The position numbers were made by a program, and so were the translations under genes. From Aquimonas sp. (GTDB lineage Bacteria > Pseudomonadota > Gammaproteobacteria > Xanthomonadales > Xanthomonadaceae): a DNA stretch of 64,000 bases. The notes under the pieces were generated by a model that was given only the letters and a program-made list of their open reading frames with translations, did no database searches and was not told the origin of the DNA. Below are positions 4,140 to 61,700 of this stretch, in pieces (position 1 is the stretch's first letter; each line of letters starts with the position of its first letter). The stretch lies in the NCBI GenBank assembly GCA_022241605.1, contig JAKOMQ010000008.1:62001-126000 (forward strand), in the 5' to 3' direction.

Positions 4140-4324
4140 GATGCCCTCCAGCGGCCGATGGCCTTGGTGAATTCCGGGTGAGTATACTGATACCCGTTTT
4201 GCACCAGTGCCAAAGCATCAAGAGTCATCAGTCACGGTTGCGACCAAGGTCAACCGCGAGCGTTTGGTGGGTCGGGCGCACGAAGACAGGGGCGCGCCCC
4301 GAGAACAACAACGGGGATACCGGC

Positions 4325-7300
4325 ATGTCTGGATCGATTGTGGAATCCGCTGGGCGGCTGTGTTCGCTCTGGCTTTCGTTGCTGCTCGGATCCGCGATGG
4401 TCTGGCTTCCGCAGACAGCCTCCGCGAGCGGCTGCGCGCTGCAGTTCGTGCAGACCTCGCCCATCGCGATCGGAGCCGGTGGAACCGCCACGGTCAATCT
4501 GGCCGTCGTGGACGCGATTCCCGGCGTGTGTTCCAGCGCCTCGTTCCTCATTTCGACGCTCTCGGACACCTCCGCCGGCACGGTGATCAGCCCCCCTACC
4601 GGCACCATGAACTTTGGCGACCCGGCGGTGGCGCTGCTGATCCAGGCCCCCGCGACAGGGGGCGGCAGTGTCGAGTTCCAGGCCCTGTGCAACTCCGGCT
4701 GCGAAAGCGTCAGCAATCCCAATCCCGTGTTCACCGTCAACATCGTCACCGACGTTTACTCGATGGCTTTTTTCAGCCCGACCAGCGGCGCGGGCTTTAT
4801 CTCCGGCGGCGGCAGCCTTGATCTGTCGGTCCTGCTCTCTCGCAACGGAATGCCCGGAAATCTCGGCCCCGGCGAAGGCGAGGTCTGTTTCGATCTGCCC
4901 ATCAGCCAGAATCCGATGGGCGCCAGCCTGGCGGGCGGCGTCGGCCCCTGCGGCATCAGCGGGCGCCGCGCAGATGCCAACGTCGATGGCGTCGCTACGG
5001 TGACCCTGGTCGGAAGCCCCAACATGTGCGCGCAGACCCTGGTCACCGCGACGGCTGTGGGCTTCCCCAGCCCGCCCAGCCTTACCTTCGGCATCACCGG
5101 AACCGATGTGCTCGATATCGTCACGGTGTCAGGCGACGCGCAGCAGGCCGTCGCGCAGACGCCCTTCCCGTTGCCGCTGGTGGCCCGGCTGCAGTGCGGT
5201 ACGGCCGCCCCCACCAGCCTTGCCGGCCTGCCCGTGCGCTTTGAACGTATCAACGGCGAGACCGCGGTGATCGACGGCGGCGCGATTTCGGCGATCCGGA
5301 TCACCGACGCCAGCGGCCTCGCAAGCGTGGGCGTGGCGGCCACCAGCCTGCCCGGCGGCACGGTGTTCCGGGCCTGCCCCGATTTCGACATCGGCTGCGA
5401 TGCCAGCACAACCTTCAATCTGACGAATCTTGGCGTGGCCGATCCGGCACTGATCGTGGTCGGTGCCGCCCAGGTGGAGCTGGCACCCGGCAGCTCGACC
5501 ACCCTGCAGGCGCAGGCAATCAACGACAGCCTGCCGGCGAGCAGCGTTGCGGTCGGGTGGAGCACGGTTTCCGGGCTCGCCACCTTGTCGATGACGGGAA
5601 CAGGGACCGACGACGGCGGCTTTGTGCAAAACACTGTCACCGCACCAGCCAGCACCGGGCTGTCCGTCATCCGCGCCGAACGCGCGGATTTCCCCGGAGT
5701 AGTGGCGGAGTTCGAAGTCGAGTCGGTGGTGTACTCGATGTCCGTTGCCACTCTGCCCGTTGGCGACGCAGGTGTGCCGCTCGTGTTCGGTGCTGGGGTT
5801 GAGCGCCAAGGCGCAACCACCTCCCTTGTGGCAAACGGAGTCGTCTCGTTCAGCGTGGTTGCCGGGCCACCGGGCGCAAGTCTGACAGCGCTGGATGGCG
5901 GCCAGATCGTTGACAGCCGCGCACGATTTGAACTTCTCGCAGCAGATCCCGGCGTCTACGTGGTACGCGCGCTGTATGCGCCGCCCTCGGGGCTTCCGCC
6001 TGTGTTTGAAGACCTGCCGATCGAGTTCACGGGCGTTGCGTCCGGCCAGCTCGAGGCGCGCTTCTCGGCCCCGGATTTCCAGCTCTACAGCGATGAAACC
6101 TCAGCATCAGGCCTCCTGCTCACCGTGTCGAATACGGACACAGGCGCAGCGCAGCCGGGGCTACTGACCGAAATCCGCATCGAATCCGGCGACGCTGCGT
6201 TTGCCGGCGCAGGCGGCAGCGTGCTGCTGTCCACCGATGCCAGTGGCCAGATCCGCACGCCATCGATCGAGGTGTCCAGCAGCGTGCGTGACGTAAGGAT
6301 CGTGGCGCGGCACCAGGGCACGGTGCTGGGGGAGATCGTTCTGCCGGTAGCGGCATCGAGCTACGCGATGCAGTTCCTTCCTCCGAATCAGGCCCTTGCG
6401 CCTGGCGCGACACTCGCGGTGGGCGTGGCCATGACCCGCACCGGCAGCGGGCCCGCTGAGCCTTTCTGGGGCGCCCAGGTGGGCTGGTCCGCCCAAGGCG
6501 GAAGGCTGCAGTCCGCACAAACGTTCACCGAGCAGGATGGACGCACGTTCAACCGCCTGACCGTCGATTCCGCAATGCCGGTCGTGCTTGCCGCGTCGTT
6601 CGATCCGGGCGGTGGCCTGGTCGGCGCCAGCATTCGCGTCGAGCTGGGCAGCCAAGCCACGGGGCTGCGGATCCTGTCTGGCGATGGACAGTCGGCATTG
6701 CCCGGCTTGCCCTTGCCCAATCCGATCATCGTGGAATCGCTGCTTGGAGGCCTGCCGCAACCGGGCGTTGCGGTTGAGCTCCGCTCCGAGCCGCCGGGTC
6801 TGGCCGCAATCGATCCGCCAGTGGCGACCAGCGACAGCAGCGGTCGAGCCCGATTCACCGTGCGCCTGCTGGAGAATGCTCAGCCCGGCCTCGTGCTGGT
6901 GGCAAGCCGCCCCGATGCTCCAGAGGCACGCGCCCCGGTTCGTGTCGAGGTCGGTCAGGGCCCCGCGCAACGCGAGCTCTTAGCCCTCTCCGGTGGCGGC
7001 CAGTTCACGCAGCCCGGCACTGAATTCTCCGAGCCGCTGGTGGTGGAGGCTCGCAACGACGGCCAGCCGGCCGCGGACATCGCTGTTCGTTTCGAGGTCA
7101 ACCCAGCGGGTGCCGCCACGGTTTTGGCATCCGATGCGCGTACCGGGCTGGATGGACGTATCGAGGCACGCATCCGGCTCGGCGCCGCCGCGACCGGGCC
7201 CATTGAGGTGACGGCCGTGCGCAGCGATGAACCGCAGGCGTCGGCACGCTTCACCCTGTTCCCTGCCGTCGGCGGCGCCGAACAGCGGCTTGAGATCGAC

Positions 7301-9451
7301 TCTGGCAACCAGCAGCTCGGCATCGCCGGAACCCGCGCGCAACCGCTGGCAGTGCGCTACCTGGTGAATGGCGAGGGTGTGGCGGGTGCGCGGGTAGCTT
7401 GGCAGGTGATCAGCGGCAGCGCCGTTCTTGATGCGCCTTCCACGTTGACCGACGCTGCCGGACTGGCACTGCAGGGACTGCGCTTTGGCAGCGCGGCGGG
7501 CGAGGTTCGCGTGCGCGCCAGCATCGACAGTCTGGACGTGGTGTTCGTCCTGCAATCGCGGCCGGCCCAGTTCGAAATCAGCGGAGGCAACGCGCAGAGT
7601 GCGGCGCCCGGCCAAGCGCTTCCCGATGCGCTTCGAGTGCGCGTGCTGCCCGAGCCGATTGCGGGCCTCGGCGTGGAGTGGCGGGTGCTGAGCGGCGGTG
7701 GCCGCATGGACGGCGCAAGCAGCCTCACCGACACCAGCGGTGAAGCCCGGATGCGCTGGACACTCGGGCCTGAGCTCGGGCGCCAGACCGCGGCGGCGCG
7801 TCTTCCGGACGGTGCGGAACTGGTTTTCGAGGCGCAGGCCGTGGGCCTTGGCGACGGCCAGTTCCGGATCGTTGCCGGCAACAACCAGCAGCTCGTCCCC
7901 GGAGTGCCGAGCGAGCCGCTGGTCATCGAACTGCTTGGCACCTCTGGACAGCCCTTGGCTGGGATCCCGCTTCGCTGGAGCACCGGGCGCGGCGTGCTGC
8001 TGGGCGACGAGGCCACCAGCACCGGCCAGGACGGGCGCTCCAGTATCCGGATCCGCTTGGACCTGCCCGGCGAGTCAAGGGTGCGCGTGCAGGTGCAGGA
8101 CACCGAGCTCGCGCTCGAATTCGTGGTCAACGGCGCTATCGCGCAGTCGCTGGGCGCCAGCGGCCGCCGTCAATCTGTCGCGCAGGCGCTGGATGCGAGC
8201 TGCGATGCGCTCTCACGCCTGCAAACCCTTACCCCCATGCAGCAGGATCTGCTGGACCGGTGTCGAGAGTTCTCGGATGCCGCGAGCTCCGACGTGCCGG
8301 GCATCGGCCGCGCGCTCGACCAGCTGCCCAACGACGTTGGCCTGAGCCTCGCCCGTGCGGGTGATGAATCCGTCCGCGGCCAGGTCCAGAACGTGGACCA
8401 GCGCCTTCGGACTTTGCGCGGCGAACGCGGCGGCGCGGGCAGCAATCGCCTGCAGCTCGGCCTCGGCGTCAGTACGCCATCCGGCACCCTTCCGGTGGCT
8501 GCCCTGCCCGGCATGGCGCTGGCAGTGGACGGCGAAGCTCTGGAGCGTGAGATCGGCGAGACCTTCGAGCGTTGGGGCGCCTTCGTTACCGGCAGCATCG
8601 GGCGCGGACGCTCGCGCAGCAGCGGCGAAGCCCTTCGCTTCGACTATCGGCTGGGCAGCGTCACCGCAGGCGTCGACTACCGGCTCTCGGACCGGCTGGT
8701 GCTGGGCGCTGCGGTCGGCTTCAGCCGAGATGAAACCGAGTTCTCAGCGGGCCGCGGCACGCTGGAGAGCAGCGGCACCGCAGTGTCCGCCTTTGCCAGT
8801 TTCTGGCTGCCCCAATCGTGGTACGTCGACGCCAATCTTTCTGCGGGCCGAAACAGTTTTGATCTGGAGCGCAGTCTGGTCTACAGCTTGGTTGACCGGT
8901 CAGGTGCGACACGCCGAATCGATCAACGCGCCTGGGGCGATACCGATGCTCGACTGACGGGCGGAAGCCTGACCACGGGCCGTGACTGGCAGCGACGCAG
9001 CCTCAACATCGGCAGCTATCTGCGCGCACAGTTCAGCCGCGTCGATTACGACCCGTTCCAGGAGCGCATGCTGACCGACAGACCCGGTAGCGGCCTCGCG
9101 CTCAGCGTGGAGTCCCCGGCATGGAACAGCCTGGAAGGCGTATTTGGCGCTCGCGGAAGCTGGGTGATCAGCCGCGACTGGGGCGTGCTGATGCCCAACT
9201 TCATGCTCGAATACAGCCACGAATTCCGCGACGACCCCAGTCGGTTGAACCTGCGTTTCCTGGCCGACCCAACCGCCACGGTGTTCAGCCAGTCGGGCGC
9301 GGGGATCGACAGCAGCCACGTCAATCTTGGGCTTGGCACGTCGATCCTGCTGCCGGGCGGGCGCTCGGGCTTCGTCCAGTATGAGCGCCGCCTGTTCGAC
9401 GATCGAATCAGCCACTGGCTGCTGAGCATCGGTGGACGCTTCGAGTTCTGA
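4325..9451 (+). CDS. Large autotransporter-type surface protein with tandem Ig-like repeats and C-terminal beta-barrel
   Basis: Signal peptide after M at 4325 (MSGSIVESAGRLCSLWLSLLLGSAMVWLPQTASASG), five ~95-aa Big-like repeats (ISGGNAQ.. / VAGNNQQ..), terminal barrel region (RWGAFVTGSIGRGRSR...LLSIGGRFEF) ending in Phe. Confidence 0.85.
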   Translation: MSGSIVESAGRLCSLWLSLLLGSAMVWLPQTASASGCALQFVQTSPIAIGAGGTATVNLAVVDAIPGVCSSASFLISTLSDTSAGTVISPPTGTMNFGDPAVALLIQAPATGGGSVEFQALCNSGCESVSNPNPVFTVNIVTDVYSMAFFSPTSGAGFISGGGSLDLSVLLSRNGMPGNLGPGEGEVCFDLPISQNPMGASLAGGVGPCGISGRRADANVDGVATVTLVGSPNMCAQTLVTATAVGFPSPPSLTFGITGTDVLDIVTVSGDAQQAVAQTPFPLPLVARLQCGTAAPTSLAGLPVRFERINGETAVIDGGAISAIRITDASGLASVGVAATSLPGGTVFRACPDFDIGCDASTTFNLTNLGVADPALIVVGAAQVELAPGSSTTLQAQAINDSLPASSVAVGWSTVSGLATLSMTGTGTDDGGFVQNTVTAPASTGLSVIRAERADFPGVVAEFEVESVVYSMSVATLPVGDAGVPLVFGAGVERQGATTSLVANGVVSFSVVAGPPGASLTALDGGQIVDSRARFELLAADPGVYVVRALYAPPSGLPPVFEDLPIEFTGVASGQLEARFSAPDFQLYSDETSASGLLLTVSNTDTGAAQPGLLTEIRIESGDAAFAGAGGSVLLSTDASGQIRTPSIEVSSSVRDVRIVARHQGTVLGEIVLPVAASSYAMQFLPPNQALAPGATLAVGVAMTRTGSGPAEPFWGAQVGWSAQGGRLQSAQTFTEQDGRTFNRLTVDSAMPVVLAASFDPGGGLVGASIRVELGSQATGLRILSGDGQSALPGLPLPNPIIVESLLGGLPQPGVAVELRSEPPGLAAIDPPVATSDSSGRARFTVRLLENAQPGLVLVASRPDAPEARAPVRVEVGQGPAQRELLALSGGGQFTQPGTEFSEPLVVEARNDGQPAADIAVRFEVNPAGAATVLASDARTGLDGRIEARIRLGAAATGPIEVTAVRSDEPQASARFTLFPAVGGAEQRLEIDSGNQQLGIAGTRAQPLAVRYLVNGEGVAGARVAWQVISGSAVLDAPSTLTDAAGLALQGLRFGSAAGEVRVRASIDSLDVVFVLQSRPAQFEISGGNAQSAAPGQALPDALRVRVLPEPIAGLGVEWRVLSGGGRMDGASSLTDTSGEARMRWTLGPELGRQTAAARLPDGAELVFEAQAVGLGDGQFRIVAGNNQQLVPGVPSEPLVIELLGTSGQPLAGIPLRWSTGRGVLLGDEATSTGQDGRSSIRIRLDLPGESRVRVQVQDTELALEFVVNGAIAQSLGASGRRQSVAQALDASCDALSRLQTLTPMQQDLLDRCREFSDAASSDVPGIGRALDQLPNDVGLSLARAGDESVRGQVQNVDQRLRTLRGERGGAGSNRLQLGLGVSTPSGTLPVAALPGMALAVDGEALEREIGETFERWGAFVTGSIGRGRSRSSGEALRFDYRLGSVTAGVDYRLSDRLVLGAAVGFSRDETEFSAGRGTLESSGTAVSAFASFWLPQSWYVDANLSAGRNSFDLERSLVYSLVDRSGATRRIDQRAWGDTDARLTGGSLTTGRDWQRRSLNIGSYLRAQFSRVDYDPFQERMLTDRPGSGLALSVESPAWNSLEGVFGARGSWVISRDWGVLMPNFMLEYSHEFRDDPSRLNLRFLADPTATVFSQSGAGIDSSHVNLGLGTSILLPGGRSGFVQYERRLFDDRISHWLLSIGGRFEF
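6667..8138 (+). repeat. Five tandem ~95-aa Ig-like repeat units within the autotransporter passenger
   Basis: Units begin RILSGDGQS, LLALSGGGQF, RLEIDSGNQQ, QFEISGGNAQ, QFRIVAGNNQQ with a similar spacing and D-x-x-G-x-A/S core. Confidence 0.75.
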
Positions 9452-30662: not shown

Positions 30663-31345
30663 TTATCGGCCAGCACGGCCTGCGGGGGAAACTGCCAAAC
30701 GGACTGGTTCGGGCGTGATCCGAAAGGAGCGGCAGGCGCCCCACCATGTGACGCGGGCTAGCGGCTTCCGACAGGGCAACGCTGGCAGCACCCCAAGCTC
30801 GGGGTCGTTGACGCGACCGCCCATGTGGACCAAGCCCACCGAGTCCAGCTGCTCGTGCCCGGTGAAGCCGCGCGTGGTGTACGGCGGAATCACGAAGGCC
30901 GCCGCGCTGTTCCAGTCGTTGCCGTTGCGACGACCGCCGTGCGGATCGAAGCTCATCCGCTGCAGCACCGCGCCGGTGGCGCTGGCGATCACGCCTACCG
31001 AGCCCAGCGCATCGGTGAACAGGTACTGCTTCAGCGGCGCGCTGCCGTTGCTGTAGCGCGTTTCGATCAGCACGCCGAGCTGGCGGCGGTCCTCCACCAC
31101 CCCGTCGGGACGGGTGACCTCCTCGACGCTGCCAAAGGTGCGGGTGACTGTGATCTGCCCGTTGATGGTCTCGCGCCGCAGGTAGCGGCTGCCGTCGGGG
31201 GCGTAGGAGAGCTCCAGGTGGGCCGACGAAGATCGAATTCAAGGGCGGCATGCGGGCTGGCGTAACGCCCCACCCGGAGCTCCTGGCTGTCACCCAGGTA
31301 CGTGTTCGGCGGGGATCTGACACTTAGCGGTCTGTGTTGCTGCAA
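30663..31345 (-). pseudogene. Decayed RHS core fragment (copy B), lacking N-terminus and toxin tip
   Basis: Broken frames: TYLGDSQELRVGRYASPHAALEF then (shifted) ELSYAPDGSRYLRRETINGQITVTRTFGSVEEVTRPDGVVEDRR...FTDALGSVGVIASATGAVLQRMSFDPHGGRR...YTTRGFTGHEQLDSVGLVHMGGRVNDPELG, after which RHS similarity stops. Confidence 0.8.
30793..31104 (-). repeat. Direct repeat copy B of ~312-bp RHS core
   Basis: Near-identical to 32978..33289 at constant offset 2185; about 7 amino-acid differences over ~103 residues. Confidence 0.85.
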
Positions 31346-31800
31346 GCCAAGGCTATTCGACCCATGATCAAGCTAAACGCCTCTGGAGACACCGATGAGT
31401 CGTTACCTCGCTCGGTCATGCGCGACAGGTCCAAACCGTCAACAAAAAGACCTGTGCCATTCCTTCGACCGATAAAAACCCCACCAACCGATCCGTCATT
31501 ACCAAAATAAATAGGGCGAACTTCAGCCCCTCTTAATACGGTCGGCAACCCATCATCGAGAACCGATCGACGAATAGCTCCGTGCCACCCTGGAAACACA
31601 AGCCTCCCTAGCGTTCTTTCCTCATTGATCAGAATTCTTCCAAGGATCTTCTCGTCCGCCCAATCAAGCACGTCCTCTCTTACTCGATCGTTCTCCAAAA
31701 GCTCGCGCCAGTATGCGCACTCTCTGGCGTCGGAATGCTCATGACTGCACCCCACGAACATGAAGGTGATGCACGCAATCAAGAAAGGCCGACAGCACAT
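31324..31800 (-). CDS. Small predicted lipoprotein, candidate immunity protein for adjacent RHS tip
   Basis: MCCRPFLIACITFMFVGCSHEHS lipobox-like N-terminus; its ATG is 1 nt after the toxin-tip TAA; lower GC than flanks. Confidence 0.6.
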   Translation of the reverse strand: MCCRPFLIACITFMFVGCSHEHSDARECAYWRELLENDRVREDVLDWADEKILGRILINEERTLGRLVFPGWHGAIRRSVLDDGLPTVLRGAEVRPIYFGNDGSVGGVFIGRRNGTGLFVDGLDLSRMTERGNDSSVSPEAFSLIMGRIALACSNTDR

Positions 31801-31801
31801 A

Positions 31802-32749
31802 TTATCGCCCTCGCCTGTTGTAGAAATCGTAGCCGTATGCCGTCCACCTCAATCGATTCGGTATTCGGTCAGCCCCCTTAAATGCCAGATTGTAGGTAAC
31901 GACTGAGTTGTATGCGGTGCTAAAGTGGTTGCCGCGAGCGGCGTGGAGCATACCTTGATAAAGATAGTTTATGTCTCCGCCCACTTGAATTGCAGACAAC
32001 CCACCCGGCGCACCAACTATTCGAAACTGATCTCCGCCATAGCGCCCATAAAATACGCTATCGCCAGTAGCGTTTACGCCCCAAAGCACTTCTGAAAAGC
32101 GATTCAGCGACATATTTCGATAGCCTCCGGCTGCGGAAGATCGCATATCCAACATGCGCGCCTCCGTCTCCATTATGTAATGCAGCTCGTCCACGGTTAT
32201 TGATTTAACCCCATCCTCGCCTGCAGGCCGCTCAAGAATACCGCGAACACTGTCAAGACGCGAAGCCAATTCGTCAGACCAGAATGGCTCTTCTTGCTCC
32301 CTGCGGCTCGCTTGGGAGGCCCCCTCATGCGCCATCGTATTAAACGCAAACGACATCGCCGCAGTCACCGCCCCATTGGCAAACTTCCCTCCGCTCAAGC
32401 TCGATGCCGTGCCACCGATCATGGCATGCACCACGCCGCGGGCGGCTTGGGTCTCAATGCCCTGGGTCAGTGGGCCGGCGGCTTCGGAGAAGCCTGCGCT
32501 GGCAAAGCCATGCGCGAACTTGCCGCCCTGCAGGCTGCTGGTAATGCCGCCTGCGCTGCCGTGGGCCACGATCTTGCTGACCCGGCCGATGGTGTTGAGC
32601 TTGTCGCCTGTGCGCGCCCAGGCCGACGCCTGGGTGCCGGCATCGAAGTAGCTGCCGATCCCGAAGAACAACGCCCCTGAAAAGGCCCCGTACAAGCCGC
32701 CCTTCAGGCTGCCGCTCTGCACCGCACCGGCCGCGAATCCGCCGGCCAC
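31802..32749 (-). CDS. RHS protein C-terminal region with pretoxin segment and variable toxin-like tip (frameshifted from RHS core)
   Basis: Gly-rich pretoxin AGGFAAGAVQSGSLKGGLYGAFSGALFFGIGSYF; variable tip after NTMAHEG: RREQEEPFWSDEL...GGDINYLYQGMLHAARGNHFSTAYNSVVTYNLAFKGADRIPNRLRWTAYGYDFYNRRGR. Confidence 0.65.
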   Translation of the reverse strand: MAGGFAAGAVQSGSLKGGLYGAFSGALFFGIGSYFDAGTQASAWARTGDKLNTIGRVSKIVAHGSAGGITSSLQGGKFAHGFASAGFSEAAGPLTQGIETQAARGVVHAMIGGTASSLSGGKFANGAVTAAMSFAFNTMAHEGASQASRREQEEPFWSDELASRLDSVRGILERPAGEDGVKSITVDELHYIMETEARMLDMRSSAAGGYRNMSLNRFSEVLWGVNATGDSVFYGRYGGDQFRIVGAPGGLSAIQVGGDINYLYQGMLHAARGNHFSTAYNSVVTYNLAFKGADRIPNRLRWTAYGYDFYNRRGR

Positions 32750-33285
32750 CGTGACCGCAAAGGCTTGGCCGGTGCCGAGCGTCGTTCCCCAAATGCCGCC
32801 GGCCCAGCCCCCCCCGTGTACACCGTGATCGCCACCGCCACCACCGTGCGCAGCAGCTGGCCCAGCGACAGGTAGCCGCTGGGGTCGGTCAGCGCCAGCG
32901 GGTTGTTCAGCACATAGCTGTAGCGGTTCAGGCCCTGCAGGCCGGCATCCAGCATCGGGTCCGGCTGCAGGAAGCGCCCAAGCTCAGGGTCATAGACGCG
33001 AGCGCCCATGTGGACCAAGCCCACCGAGTCCAGCTGCTCGTGCCCGGTGAAGCCGCGCGTGGTGTATGGCGGAATCACGAAGGCCGCCGCGCTGTTCCAG
33101 TCGTTGGCGTTGCGACGGCCGCCGTGCGGATCGAAGCTCATCCGCTGCAGCACCGCGCCGGTGGCGCTGGCGATCACGTCCACCGAGCCCAGCGCATCGG
33201 TGAACAGGTACTGCTTCAGCGGGGCGATGCCGTTGCTGTAGCGCGCTTCAATCAGCACGCCGAGCTGACGGCGGTCCTCCATCAC
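32704..33285 (-). pseudogene. RHS core fragment (copy A), frame lost in a G7 tract before the toxin tip
   Basis: FTDALGSVDVIASATGAVLQRMSFDPHGGRR...RVYDPELGRFLQPDPMLDAGLQGLNRYSYVLNNPLALTDPSG; removing one G from the C/G7 run at 32809-32815 joins it to 31802..32749. Confidence 0.8.
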
Positions 33286-56831: not shown

Positions 56832-57218
56832 TCGCGGAGCTGCGAAGCCTTCGTGGACGATGCCGAAGCCCTTTTCGGGACTCGTCCCGAGAGCAAGTGC
56901 CACCGGCTCAGGGGCTTGGGCAGCAACCCGAGCCCCGGGGCGTCAGCGGCCCGAGTGGATAAAGGTCCGATGTCGGGGCCCAACGGATCCCTGCCGCCCA
57001 GACTAACGTCACCCTGACGCCCTCAGTCACGCCGCTGGCAGCGCGGCGAGCGGGCGCGGCGAGCGGGCGCCCGGCCGCGATCACTTCGCGTCGCTTTTTG
57101 CGCCTTTACTCGAAAGGGTCGATTCGCCGACTCTTCAATGGCGCACGCCCAGGCGTCCAGCACGGCCGGCCACCCCGATGCGGAGCCTTGCGCGCTCTCG
57201 ATCCAGCAAGGAACCCGA

Positions 57219-60200
57219 ATGCACCCGACTCCCTGTCGTCCGAACCGCCATCCACGTCCGGCCACGCCATCGGGAGCTGCGCTGTGTGCGCTCGCGATCC
57301 TGATCGCAGCCCCGCTGCCTCAACTGGCGCACGCGGCCACCCTCACGGTCACCTCGACCGCTGCGGATCGCGGCAGCTTCACCGAGCTGCAGTGCCTGCC
57401 GCCGGGCAGCGACGTGGATCCAGGTCCGGGCGCGGCCACCGGCACCGGCGGCGCCACTCTGGCTGCGGCGATGGCCGATGGGGTGGTCACCCTGCGCGAG
57501 GCGATCTGCGTCGCCAACAACACGCCCGAGCCGGACGTGATCGTGCTGTCGCCGGCGACCTACACATTGAGCGTGGCCGACAACTACTGGTACGGCCCGA
57601 ACGCGCTGCCGCCGATCGCCGATGACATCACGATCGAGGGCAATGGTGCGGTGATCCGCCGCAATCCGGCCAACAGCGATGCCGTGCTGAGCCAGCGATT
57701 CCGCTTTTTCTTCGTCCCGCGCAAGACCCTGACCGATGGCATTGCGATCCGCGGCGGCGTCGACCGTGGCCGGCTGGTCCTGAGGGACCTCACCCTGCTC
57801 CAAGGCCTCGCCCAAGGCGGCTCGGGCGAAACGGGCGGCGGCGGCGCGGGAATGGGCGGGGCGATCTTCAATCAGGGGCGGGTCGACCTTGAGCGGGTCT
57901 CCTTCATCGGCAACACCGCACGCGGGGGTGCCTCGGGACCCGGAATCCTCGTCAACACCGGTCGCGGCGGCGGCATGGGCCAGAATGGTCCGGCCGGCGG
58001 TGGCTTCGGGCCGGGCCAGTTCGGTGGCGCCCTTGGCGGGACGTCCCTGTTCCAGCCTGGCGTCGGAATCGACACCCTCACGTATGGCTGCGGTGGCGGC
58101 GCAGGTTTTGGGCTTGGCGCCGGTGGCAATGCCTCCGTGCGGGAGCTCGTGCCGGGAGCGACCATGGTCTTCGGCGGCTCGGGCGGCGGGCTCGGCAATG
58201 TGGGCGGTTCGGTCACAACGTTTTGCGCCTTCGACGATCTGACCGTGTGCTCGGGCAAAGGCCGCGACGGCGGTGGCGGTGGCGTCGGCGGCGCCAACTC
58301 CACCGATGGCAGCGGCGCCGGCGGTGGCTTCGGGGGTGCCGGCAGCACGGCGACCACCTGCGGCGGTGGCGGCGGGGTTGGCGGTGGCGGTGGAGAGGGA
58401 AGATTCAACGCCGACTTCATCGGCGGCGCCGGCGGATTCGGTGGCGGCGGAGGCAGCACATTCGCGGGCACGACCACCCCCGCCACGCCCTTCGTTGGGG
58501 GCGACGGAGGCTTCGGCGGAGGCGGCGGTGCCGGTTATCACCCCAGCGAGCCGCTGTTTGGTCGGGGCGGTTTCGGTGGTGGCGATGGAGGCAACATCGG
58601 GGGAGGCTTCCCCAGCGGCGGCGGCGGCGCCGGAATGGGCGGCGCGCTGTTCAACCACGGCGGCGAGGTGATCGCCAGCAACACCTCATGGAGCGGCAAC
58701 AGCGCTGTCGGCGGTGCGGCGATCGTGGCGCGCTCGGCGGCGCCGGGCGCCGGCATGGGCGGCGCGATCTTCAATCTGGATGGCATCCTGGACATCCGTT
58801 TCTGCACGCTGTCCGGCAACCGCGTCTCTCGGGAAGTGCCCAATGTGTTCGAGGACCCGGCCCCCGCTGGCGGCGCGATCTACAACCGCGTGCAGAACCC
58901 CGCGATCTACGGTTTCGCGCCGAGTGTGTCCATTCGCGCCTCGATCCTGGCGAACTCGCTGGATGAGGACGATCTGCCAATCTCCGACTGCAACCACTCC
59001 GCGCATCCCGACGCTGGCCTCAGCTCACAGCTTGCGGTTTCGGAACAGAATCTGTTCGAAAGCTCTTCCACCATCGCCAACTCACCGGTCGCACACAGCG
59101 CCTGCGCGCTGGGTACCGGCAGTGTGCTGGGCGATCCGCAGCTTCTCCCCATCGCCAACAACGGCGGCCTGACCGAGACGATGGCGCTGGACCTCGGCAG
59201 CCCGGCCATCGATGCCGCCAGCACCTGCACGCAGCCTGCGACCGACCAGCGCGGCGTGCCGCGGCCACAGGGCGCCGCCTGCGACGCCGGCGCGTTCGAG
59301 CGCGAGCTTCTCTTGTGTCCGGCGGGCGGCGTTCTCCACGTCGACGCCCAGGCCGCCAGCGGCGGCGATGGCCTGAGCTGGGCCACGGCTTTCGCCGACC
59401 TGCAGGACGCACTGGCCGTGGTGGACGCCTGCGAGGTCTGGGTGGCGGCCGGCGTCTACCGGCCCACCGCGGACTCCAGCGAGCGCAGCGCCAGCTTCGT
59501 CCTCAAGAACGGCGTGGCCGTCTACGGCGGCTTCGCTGGCACGGAAACCGCCCGTGATCAGCGCGACCCGCTGGTGAACCTGAGCGTGCTCTCCGGCGAC
59601 ATCGACAACAACGACAGCACCGACGCGAACGGTGTCGTGGTCAGCGCAGACGACATCGTCGGCGCCAACAGCCATCACGTCATCGTGGGCGACGCCATCG
59701 ATGCCACGGCCATCTTCGACGGCTTCACCATCACCGCCGGGCTGGCCGACGGGGCCGCCACCGCCGATAGGCGCGGCGCCGGCATGACGCTCGCGAACGC
59801 CAGCCCCTTGCTCAGCCGGATCGACTTCGTCGGAAACCGCGCTGCTTCGTCGGGCGCTGGCCTGTACAGCAGCGGCACCGGCACCAGCCCTACCCTGAGC
59901 CACGTCCGTTTTCGTTCGAACGTCTCCGGGGCGACCGGGGGCGGGTACTTCAACCAGTCCGGCAACCCCGCGCTGAGCGATGTGGAATTCAGCAGCAATC
60001 GCGCCGCCAACGGCGGTGGCATGCTGAGCCAGCTGGGTGCCCCAACCCTGAACAATGTCAGCTTCATCAACAATCGGGCCGTCTCGGGCATGGGCGGTGG
60101 GATGGCGAACAATTTCTCCGACCCCGTGCTGACCAACGTCAGCTTCATCGGCAATTCCGCCCAGGCAGGCGGCGGTGGGATGCGGATCGATCGGGGCAAC

Positions 60201-61700
60201 CCGGTGCTGACCAATGTCAGCTTCATCGGCAACCTTGCCTCGTCCGGCGGCGGGATGCGGCTTGATCAGGGCAACCCAGTCCTCACCAACCTCAGCTTCA
60301 GCGGCAATCGCGCCACGGGCGAGGGCGGCGGCGGCGGGTTGCTGAGCTTCCGGGTGCTGCAGCCGCCCGGCGCCACCTTGCTGCGCAATGCGGTGTTCTG
60401 GAACAACCAGGACAACAGCGGCACCGGCACGCAGACGGCATCGTTCCGTTATGTCAGCTTGGACGATGGGGTGCCCGGCATCGCCTACAGCTTGGTGCAG
60501 GGCTGCAATCCGGGCGGTGGCTGGGTCAACGCCTGCGGTGTCGACCGCGGCAACAACCTGGCCGACGCCGACCCCGTGTTCGTTGCCCTGCCCGATCCCG
60601 CGACGGCGCCCAGCGCAAGTGGCGACCTGCGTCTTCGGGCGCGCTCGCCGGCGGTCAATACCGGCAACAGCAGCCTCAACGCTACGGACCTCGACCTCGC
60701 AGGCAACGCCCGCGTGTTTGGCGGCACCATCGATCTGGGTGCGTTTGAAACGCCGTATCTGGGCATCAGCCTGAGCGCGGCCGGCGGCGGCTCCGGCAGC
60801 GCGGGCCTGGTGTCCCCGCTGCCCGGGCGATTCGATGCTGGCGAGGACGTGACGGTGTCCGCCACGCCAGCCGCGGATTCCGACTTCGCCGGCTGGAGCG
60901 GCGATCTCACCGCTTCGGCGAATCCGCTGACGTTCGCCATCAGCGGCGACACGACGCTGATCGCAAACTTCGCGCTCAAGACCTACGTGGTCACCGCCAG
61001 CAGCAGCGGCCAGGGCGGCATCACCCCGGCCAGCCAAAGCGTGGTCATCGGCGGGACGGCCAGCTTCGCCGTGACACCCGCTGTCGGCTGGGCACTCGAC
61101 AGCGTCAGCGGCGACACCTGCACGCCGGCCGATCAGGGCTCAGGCAGCTGGACCGCCGCGGGCATCAGCCAGCCCTGCGCGGTGCTGGCGGAATTCGTGC
61201 CGGTGTCCGCCGACCTGCAGGTCGCCAAGGACGCCGGCGTCGACTCGGCACTCAACGGCCAGGTGCTGGTCTATGCGATCACCGTGGCCAATGCCGGCCC
61301 GGCCGCGGTGACCGGTGCCCAGCTTGCCGACACCCTGCCGGCCACCCTGGTAGACGCCGAGTGGGCCTGTCTGCCGGCCGCGTCCAACGTGCCCTGCCCG
61401 CCCGCGCCCTTCGACGCCGGCAGCGGCAACCTCTACGCCGAGATCGACCTGCCGGCCGACGGCTTCCTGCGCTATGACCTTTCCGCGCGGGTCCAAGCTG
61501 CCGCAGGAACCGTGGTGGCGAACACGGCCACGGTGACTCCGCCTGCGGGCATCGACGAGCTCGACCCGTCCAACAACAGCGCCAGCGACAGCCTTCAAGT
61601 CGTGCCGGTCGGAATGTTCGGCAACGGTTTCGAGGCCGGGCCCAGCCCGCTTACCGTGCCGGCGGCGGCCAAAGCGCAGCGGGAGGCTTCCGGGAGGTAG
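57219..61700 (+). CDS. Large secreted parallel beta-helix protein (choice-of-anchor-Q-like) with InlB-like and DUF11-like C-terminal domains
   Basis: Signal peptide MHPTPCRPNRHPRPATPSGAALCALAILIAAPLPQLAHA; Gly-rich section; repeated (N/D)PVLTNVSFIGN rungs; AGEDVTVSATPAADSDFAGWSGDL; DLQVAKDAGVDSALNGQVLVYAITVANAGP; C-term MFGNGFEAG. Confidence 0.85.
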   Translation: MHPTPCRPNRHPRPATPSGAALCALAILIAAPLPQLAHAATLTVTSTAADRGSFTELQCLPPGSDVDPGPGAATGTGGATLAAAMADGVVTLREAICVANNTPEPDVIVLSPATYTLSVADNYWYGPNALPPIADDITIEGNGAVIRRNPANSDAVLSQRFRFFFVPRKTLTDGIAIRGGVDRGRLVLRDLTLLQGLAQGGSGETGGGGAGMGGAIFNQGRVDLERVSFIGNTARGGASGPGILVNTGRGGGMGQNGPAGGGFGPGQFGGALGGTSLFQPGVGIDTLTYGCGGGAGFGLGAGGNASVRELVPGATMVFGGSGGGLGNVGGSVTTFCAFDDLTVCSGKGRDGGGGGVGGANSTDGSGAGGGFGGAGSTATTCGGGGGVGGGGGEGRFNADFIGGAGGFGGGGGSTFAGTTTPATPFVGGDGGFGGGGGAGYHPSEPLFGRGGFGGGDGGNIGGGFPSGGGGAGMGGALFNHGGEVIASNTSWSGNSAVGGAAIVARSAAPGAGMGGAIFNLDGILDIRFCTLSGNRVSREVPNVFEDPAPAGGAIYNRVQNPAIYGFAPSVSIRASILANSLDEDDLPISDCNHSAHPDAGLSSQLAVSEQNLFESSSTIANSPVAHSACALGTGSVLGDPQLLPIANNGGLTETMALDLGSPAIDAASTCTQPATDQRGVPRPQGAACDAGAFERELLLCPAGGVLHVDAQAASGGDGLSWATAFADLQDALAVVDACEVWVAAGVYRPTADSSERSASFVLKNGVAVYGGFAGTETARDQRDPLVNLSVLSGDIDNNDSTDANGVVVSADDIVGANSHHVIVGDAIDATAIFDGFTITAGLADGAATADRRGAGMTLANASPLLSRIDFVGNRAASSGAGLYSSGTGTSPTLSHVRFRSNVSGATGGGYFNQSGNPALSDVEFSSNRAANGGGMLSQLGAPTLNNVSFINNRAVSGMGGGMANNFSDPVLTNVSFIGNSAQAGGGGMRIDRGNPVLTNVSFIGNLASSGGGMRLDQGNPVLTNLSFSGNRATGEGGGGGLLSFRVLQPPGATLLRNAVFWNNQDNSGTGTQTASFRYVSLDDGVPGIAYSLVQGCNPGGGWVNACGVDRGNNLADADPVFVALPDPATAPSASGDLRLRARSPAVNTGNSSLNATDLDLAGNARVFGGTIDLGAFETPYLGISLSAAGGGSGSAGLVSPLPGRFDAGEDVTVSATPAADSDFAGWSGDLTASANPLTFAISGDTTLIANFALKTYVVTASSSGQGGITPASQSVVIGGTASFAVTPAVGWALDSVSGDTCTPADQGSGSWTAAGISQPCAVLAEFVPVSADLQVAKDAGVDSALNGQVLVYAITVANAGPAAVTGAQLADTLPATLVDAEWACLPAASNVPCPPAPFDAGSGNLYAEIDLPADGFLRYDLSARVQAAAGTVVANTATVTPPAGIDELDPSNNSASDSLQVVPVGMFGNGFEAGPSPLTVPAAAKAQREASGR
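59802..60345 (+). repeat. ~25-aa beta-helix rung repeats
   Basis: SPLLSRIDFVGN / SPTLSHVRFRSN / NPALSDVEFSSN / APTLNNVSFINN / DPVLTNVSFIGN / NPVLTNVSFIGN / NPVLTNLSFSGN, each ending in a GGGM-like turn. Confidence 0.8.

What the first reader, a model, noticed from the sequence alone, without database searches (positions are those of the whole stretch)
31324..32314. Candidate new RHS toxin tip with a lipoprotein partner
The C-terminal variable region (RREQEEPFWSDEL...INYLYQGMLHAARGN...GYDFYNRRGR) is lower in GC than its surroundings. Its TAA is separated by one nucleotide from the ATG of a small predicted lipoprotein, a typical toxin-immunity arrangement. I cannot assign the tip to a known toxin family. 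A lipoprotein immunity would suggest a periplasmic or membrane target.
Basis: partly seen in the sequence, partly recalled or inferred. Interest (0 to 1): 0.6.

Follow-up and report, generated by a model that had tools for sequence, protein, structure and literature searches.

The report
Orphaned RHS toxin tip with lipoprotein
A stretch of DNA in a Lysobacter-family bacterium encodes an unnamed antibacterial toxin end-piece plus the exported protein that probably protects its owner; the pair recurs in at least four other bacteria and probably acts on the cell envelope, but here it sits on a broken carrier gene.

Summary
A low-GC cassette (52.6% against 67.5%) carries the C-terminal tip of an RHS protein and, one base after its TAA, a small lipoprotein. 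The tip matches no Pfam, NCBIfam, PHROG, PADLOC or PDB entry. It is a real family: intact relatives lie at the ends of RHS proteins in Lysobacter, Luteimonas, Pseudoxanthomonas and a more distant gammaproteobacterium, plus a broken copy elsewhere in the family. Each is followed by a homologous or similar partner with a lipobox, signal peptide or N-terminal membrane anchor. Sister RHS genes keep the same core and linker but end in unrelated tips, and all five inspected also have exported partners. This supports a polymorphic toxin-immunity pair acting outside the cytoplasm. Only its last ~320 residues survive, core and tip are in different frames, and a second, 95% identical core copy follows the immunity gene, so this is an orphan cassette. 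A distant relation to Ntox44 (PF15607) is hinted at but not established. Peptidoglycan hydrolysis is the most likely activity and is inferred only. New toxin family of a known kind.

The parts
32820..33285 (-). C-terminal fragment of the RHS core (RHS-associated core); everything upstream of it is missing
   Evidence: NCBIfam TIGR03696 Rhs_assc_core, 77 bits over a cut-off of 32.5; 61-65% identical to a same-genus RHS protein; its frame differs from that of linker and tip
32330..32749 (-). Linker between core and tip, conserved among RHS proteins with unrelated tips
   Evidence: 64% and 52% identical to linkers of two same-genus genomes (L103, L104), 35-47% to others; weak DUF637 similarity below cut-off
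31802..32329 (-). Toxin tip (175 aa) of an unnamed family; conserved in all intact members: G.DINY...G...A..G, N147, W162, G166
   Evidence: Relatives; alignments; no family match
31324..31800 (-). Predicted lipoprotein, putative immunity protein; family has conserved Cys28, Trp47, Asp49, Arg148, Cys153
   Evidence: Lipobox-like start, one base after the tip's TAA; homologs beside homologous tips
30663..31320 (-). Second, degenerate RHS-core fragment without a tip, downstream of the immunity gene
   Evidence: 300-bp direct repeat, 95% identical, 30792-31091 vs 32977-33276; 92% protein identity
32977..33276 (-). Upstream arm of the 300-bp direct repeat that flanks the tip-immunity cassette
30792..31091 (-). 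Downstream arm of the 300-bp direct repeat that flanks the tip-immunity cassette

Best explanation
An orphaned polymorphic-toxin cassette: the exchangeable C-terminal toxin domain of a Sec-exported RHS protein, with its cognate lipoprotein immunity gene. Shown: the tip belongs to a recurrent family of tips on RHS proteins, and is always followed by an exported or membrane-anchored partner. Shown for this copy: the carrier is reduced to a frame-disrupted C-terminal remnant inside a repeat-flanked cassette. Inferred: in intact relatives the RHS shell carries the tip out of the cell, the tip damages the envelope of a neighbour from the periplasmic side, and the immunity protein, held at the membrane, blocks it there. 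Inferred with less certainty: the target is peptidoglycan. In the window strain the toxin is probably no longer delivered; what may remain useful is the immunity protein (protection against kin) and the cassette as recombination material.
For: Tip relatives at 24-37% identity end RHS ORFs of about 990-2400 aa in Lysobacter sp. yr284 (L002/L010), Luteimonas endophytica (L003/L012), Pseudoxanthomonas sp. Root630 (L004/L011) and a genome of another family (L014/L023). Partners: lipobox (window, L002, both copies in L005), N-terminal TM (L003, L004), signal peptide (L014). Where the start is in hand the carriers have Sec-type N-termini: L022 MSAPQ...SANSWAQA with Ig domains; L020 and L023 SpvB/FG-GAP/RHS. 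Same-genus and related RHS proteins share core and linker but not the tip, and five of five inspected have exported-looking partners. GC drop and adjacency. Repeat arms and missing upstream gene. Peptidoglycan: only by analogy with Ntox44, see the report.
Against: No toxicity or binding data. The fold could not be modelled well (pLDDT 56, pTM 0.39), and Foldseek gave nothing. The exported partners could partly reflect the carrier class rather than this tip, because unrelated tips on the same carriers have them too. No catalytic residue is established. The 75%-complete assembly may lack an intact RHS gene, and an assembly error in the frame cannot be excluded.
Confidence: 0.75

Rival explanations
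1. The tip is specifically a peptidoglycan hydrolase, a far-diverged relative of Ntox44, and Ntox44 itself is a cell-wall toxin rather than the RNase it is annotated as.
For: hhalign of the tip family against 27 Ntox44 sequences: score 28.6-29.8, P 3-5e-4, against a maximum of 19.3 and 21.8 in 300 column shuffles of either side. The aligned stretch is GN.NYG..G.AAG ~ DINY..QGM.WAA.G, followed by helices ending in AQ and GY.YY, in the same helix order as in the confident Ntox44 model. By hydropathy 22 of 23 Ntox44 partner genes have a hydrophobic N-terminus. One Ntox44 protein is fused to two PG_binding_1 domains and followed by a lipoprotein gene.
Against: With 34 sequences the score falls to 22.9-25.0 (shuffle maximum 21.9), with the viral set alone to 16.8 (P 0.07), and an unrelated E. 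coli protein reaches 24.2. The Ntox44 DxK motif has no counterpart in the tip. One PG-binding fusion is thin evidence.
Confidence: 0.3
2. The tip attacks the membrane (pore former or lipid-head-group enzyme), with immunity at the membrane, as for Tse5-type RHS tips or lipocone toxins.
For: Two partners are N-terminally membrane-anchored. Lipocone toxins also pair with TM or lipoprotein immunity (PMC12419801), and an RHS pore-forming tip exists (PMC10684867).
Against: The tip is rich in polar invariant residues (D119, N121, N147, W162), which looks enzymatic. No long hydrophobic helices are obvious in the tip sequence (not computed).
Confidence: 0.25
3. A cytoplasmic toxin (e.g. nuclease) whose immunity protein intercepts it in the periplasm on its way in or out.
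For: The carriers appear to pass through the producer's own periplasm, so periplasmic interception is conceivable. Ntox44 is annotated as a predicted RNase (PMC12165300).
Against: In the A. baumannii survey, immunity proteins of nuclease effectors are predicted cytoplasmic, and those with signal peptides go mostly with peptidoglycan hydrolases (PMC6833914). No nuclease motif was found in the tip.
Confidence: 0.12
4. A decayed pseudogene of no present function.
For: Truncated carrier, frame disruption, degenerate second core.
Against: Tip (175 codons) and immunity gene (158 codons) are both free of stops and keep the family's conserved residues. This does not exclude recent decay.
Confidence: 0.35

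Closest known systems
RHS polymorphic toxin systems with orphan tip-immunity cassettes (Zhang et al. 2012, PMC3482391)
   Same: Conserved RHS core and linker, exchangeable low-GC C-terminal tip, immunity gene directly downstream, displaced core fragments in the same orientation
   Different: The tip belongs to no listed family; here the main RHS gene is missing
Ntox44 / Bacterial toxin 44 (PF15607)
   Same: Possible alignment of the C-terminal three helices; exported immunity partners
   Different: No Pfam hit; the DxK motif is absent and the profile match is not robust
Tox-JAB-1 with lipoprotein immunity Imm65 (PMC3482391)
   Same: Polymorphic toxin tip with a lipobox immunity protein; the 2012 survey called this exceptional
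   Different: No JAB motif in this tip; the lipoprotein shows no family match

Membership tests
RHS polymorphic toxin | RHS core with RHS-associated core signature before the tip | tested here: met
   TIGR03696 at 77 bits, core fragment only
RHS polymorphic toxin | Same core and linker with unrelated tips in relatives | tested here: met
RHS polymorphic toxin | Cognate immunity gene directly downstream | tested here: met
   One-base gap; homologous partners beside homologous tips
RHS polymorphic toxin | Full-length carrier with secretion route in this genome | tested here: not met
   Carrier truncated and frame-disrupted. No other close core copy. No T6SS VipA found; assembly 75% complete, so absence is weak evidence
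Ntox44 (PF15607) | Score above the Pfam cut-off of 24 bits | tested here: not met
   No hit for the window tip or two relatives
Ntox44 (PF15607) | Motifs DxK, GNxxxG, DxxxD (Zhang 2012) | tested here: not met
   G.DINY..QG takes the place of GNxxxG; DxK and DxxxD are not conserved in the family
Ntox44 (PF15607) | Significant profile-profile match | tested here: inconclusive
   P from 3e-4 to 0.07 depending on the alignment
Ntox44 (PF15607) | Same fold | tested here: inconclusive
   Ntox44 model good (pLDDT 86), tip model poor
Lipoprotein immunity protein | Signal peptide with lipobox cysteine | tested here: met
   By eye and hydropathy only: MCCRPFLIACITFMFVGC, 15-residue mean 2.04; no SignalP run
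Lipoprotein immunity protein | Neutralises the neighbouring toxin | not testable with these tools
   needs bench work

The most novel reading that the evidence does not exclude
The tip founds a new family of envelope-degrading toxins that shares a so far unsolved all-helical fold with Ntox44. Together they would form a superfamily of periplasmic, probably peptidoglycan-cleaving toxins, overturning the 'predicted RNase' label of Ntox44.
Probability: 0.2. Interest if true: 0.6.

Novelty: new member of a known kind. Interest (0 to 1): 0.4.

Why it matters
It adds an unnamed toxin-immunity family to the polymorphic-toxin catalogue, with a prediction that can be tested: the toxin works only from the periplasm and is blocked there. 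It suggests that one class of Sec-exported RHS proteins in Lysobacterales is specialised for envelope-acting tips, since every partner inspected looks exported. It also exposes a likely misannotation of the widespread Ntox44 domain.

Tried and rejected
Pfam, NCBIfam, PHROGs and PADLOC gave no assignment. Direct and profile searches of PDB sequences gave only low-scoring or designed-protein artefacts. The AlphaFold model of the tip was too poor to use, and its Foldseek matches are noise. The good Ntox44 model has no match in PDB or BFVD. Plasmids and viral contigs hold no detected relative of the tip. An AHH control for partner export was too small to use. The first profile comparison, with four Ntox44 sequences, was null. 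T6SS delivery in this strain was considered and not supported.

Full report
WHAT IS THERE. On the minus strand between map/glnD (27.2-30.7 kb) and rpsB (33.5 kb) lies an RHS remnant (gene names from my reading of the translations). Read 5' to 3' it is: RHS-associated core (33285 to about 32820; TIGR03696, 77 bits), linker (32749-32330), tip (32329-31802), TAA, one base, lipoprotein gene (31800-31324), then a second core fragment (31320-30663).

WHAT WAS MISSED. Core and tip are in different frames, and nothing of the RHS gene upstream of the last ~150 core residues is left. The two core fragments share 300 bp at 95% identity in the same orientation, so the tip-immunity pair sits between direct repeats. 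No other close copy of the core was found in the 75%-complete assembly, nor a T6SS VipA gene. This is the anatomy of an orphan tip cassette whose main gene is gone, not of a working RHS gene. Whether the frame change is real or an assembly error cannot be told here; intact copies exist in relatives.

THE TIP IS A FAMILY. No curated library names it. A search of 299 genomes of the family gave clear relatives in three (E 6e-14 to 3e-10) and a broken one in a fourth (2.7e-5; L005, with an in-frame stop). Contig lengths identify the three as Lysobacter sp. yr284, Luteimonas endophytica and Pseudoxanthomonas sp. Root630. A profile search of 369 genomes of the class added one from another family (L014, E 7e-10). 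Matches weaker than 1e-3 (L006-L009) fall in genes that look unrelated and were discarded. All five intact tips conserve G117, D119-I-N-Y122, G126, A130, G133, N147, W162 and G166. The family is rare: a profile search of 399 genomes of the phylum found only the window itself.

THE PARTNER. Each tip is followed by a small gene whose product starts with a lipobox (window, L002, two in a row in L005), a single N-terminal membrane segment (L003, L004) or a signal peptide (L014). Six of them align with invariant Cys28, Trp47, Asp49, Arg148 and Cys153; L014's partner was judged similar by eye only. Two conserved cysteines fit an oxidising, periplasmic place (inference).

CONTROL FOR THE CARRIER. The core and linker continue at 52-64% identity in RHS proteins of two same-genus genomes and at lower identity elsewhere, and stop at the tip. 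The tips there are unrelated, some with HE..H or H.HP motifs reminiscent of peptidases (motifs read by eye, no Pfam support). All five inspected partners also look exported. So export of the immunity protein is a property of this carrier class as much as of this tip. Where visible, carriers of the tip family start with Sec-type sequences and have SpvB/FG-GAP/TcdB-middle or Ig domains. The simplest reading is that these shells deliver toxins that work outside the cytoplasm.

NTOX44. The C-terminal half of the tip resembles Ntox44 by eye. Against 27 Ntox44 sequences hhalign gave scores of 28.6-29.8, above all 300 shuffles on either side. But with 34 sequences it dropped to 22.9-25.0, with the viral set to 16.8, and one of 36 unrelated E. 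coli proteins reached 24.2. I therefore call the link suggestive, not shown. Ntox44 was chosen by eye, which further weakens the P-values. The Ntox44 model (pLDDT 86, pTM 0.81) is all-helical with no PDB or BFVD match.

NTOX44 IS PROBABLY NOT AN RNASE. The 2012 survey lists no immunity family for it, and later papers repeat the ribonuclease label. By Kyte-Doolittle scan 22 of 23 candidate partner genes have a hydrophobic N-terminal stretch at the 1.7 level (18 at 2.0; the one failure, L018, is probably a wrong ORF choice beside a lipoprotein-like start), against 19 of 45 genes in an E. coli segment (a region rich in envelope genes, and scanned over 60 rather than 75 residues). The same holds by eye for most loci in viral contigs. 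One protein joins two PG_binding_1 domains to Ntox44 and is followed by a lipoprotein gene. The loci are not independent samples.

MECHANISM. Most likely: an exported toxin domain, probably an enzyme, acts on the envelope from the periplasmic side and is blocked by a membrane-held immunity protein. Peptidoglycan is my first guess for the substrate (about 0.3-0.4), lipid or membrane next. In the window strain delivery is probably lost and immunity may persist.

VERDICT. New toxin family, known kind of system.

Noticed in passing
G000:C39:27847-28182 (L015): The same genome has a true Ntox44 tip (81 bits) whose stop overlaps the start of a lipoprotein-like gene (MRRAAILALTCVLTAC...), a second tip-lipoprotein pair.
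   Followed up: partly
L015-L018, L029-L053, L060-L088: Ntox44 (PF15607), annotated as a predicted RNase, has partners with hydrophobic N-termini or lipoboxes at nearly every locus, which argues for a periplasmic or membrane site of action.
   Followed up: partly
L086:1766-2812: Ntox44 fused to two PG_binding_1 domains in a Gram-positive-looking contig of the viral collection, followed by a lipoprotein gene.
   Followed up: partly
L063, L064, L066: Stand-alone Ntox44 genes directly after an Hcp-like gene, with the partner start overlapping the toxin stop by 23 bases.
   Followed up: no
L103, L104, L094, L096, L100: RHS proteins with the same core and linker end in unrelated tips, some with HE..H or H.HP motifs, and all have exported-looking partners.
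   Followed up: partly
L005/L024: A broken tip of the family (in-frame stop) with two immunity homologs nearby, suggesting that immunity genes outlive their toxins.
   Followed up: no
window 4178-9451 (+): A 1757-aa autotransporter with Big_1 Ig-like domain and C-terminal beta-domain.
   Followed up: no
window 57138-61700 (+): A 1520-aa protein with DUF11 and InlB B-repeat-like domains near its C-terminus.
   Followed up: no
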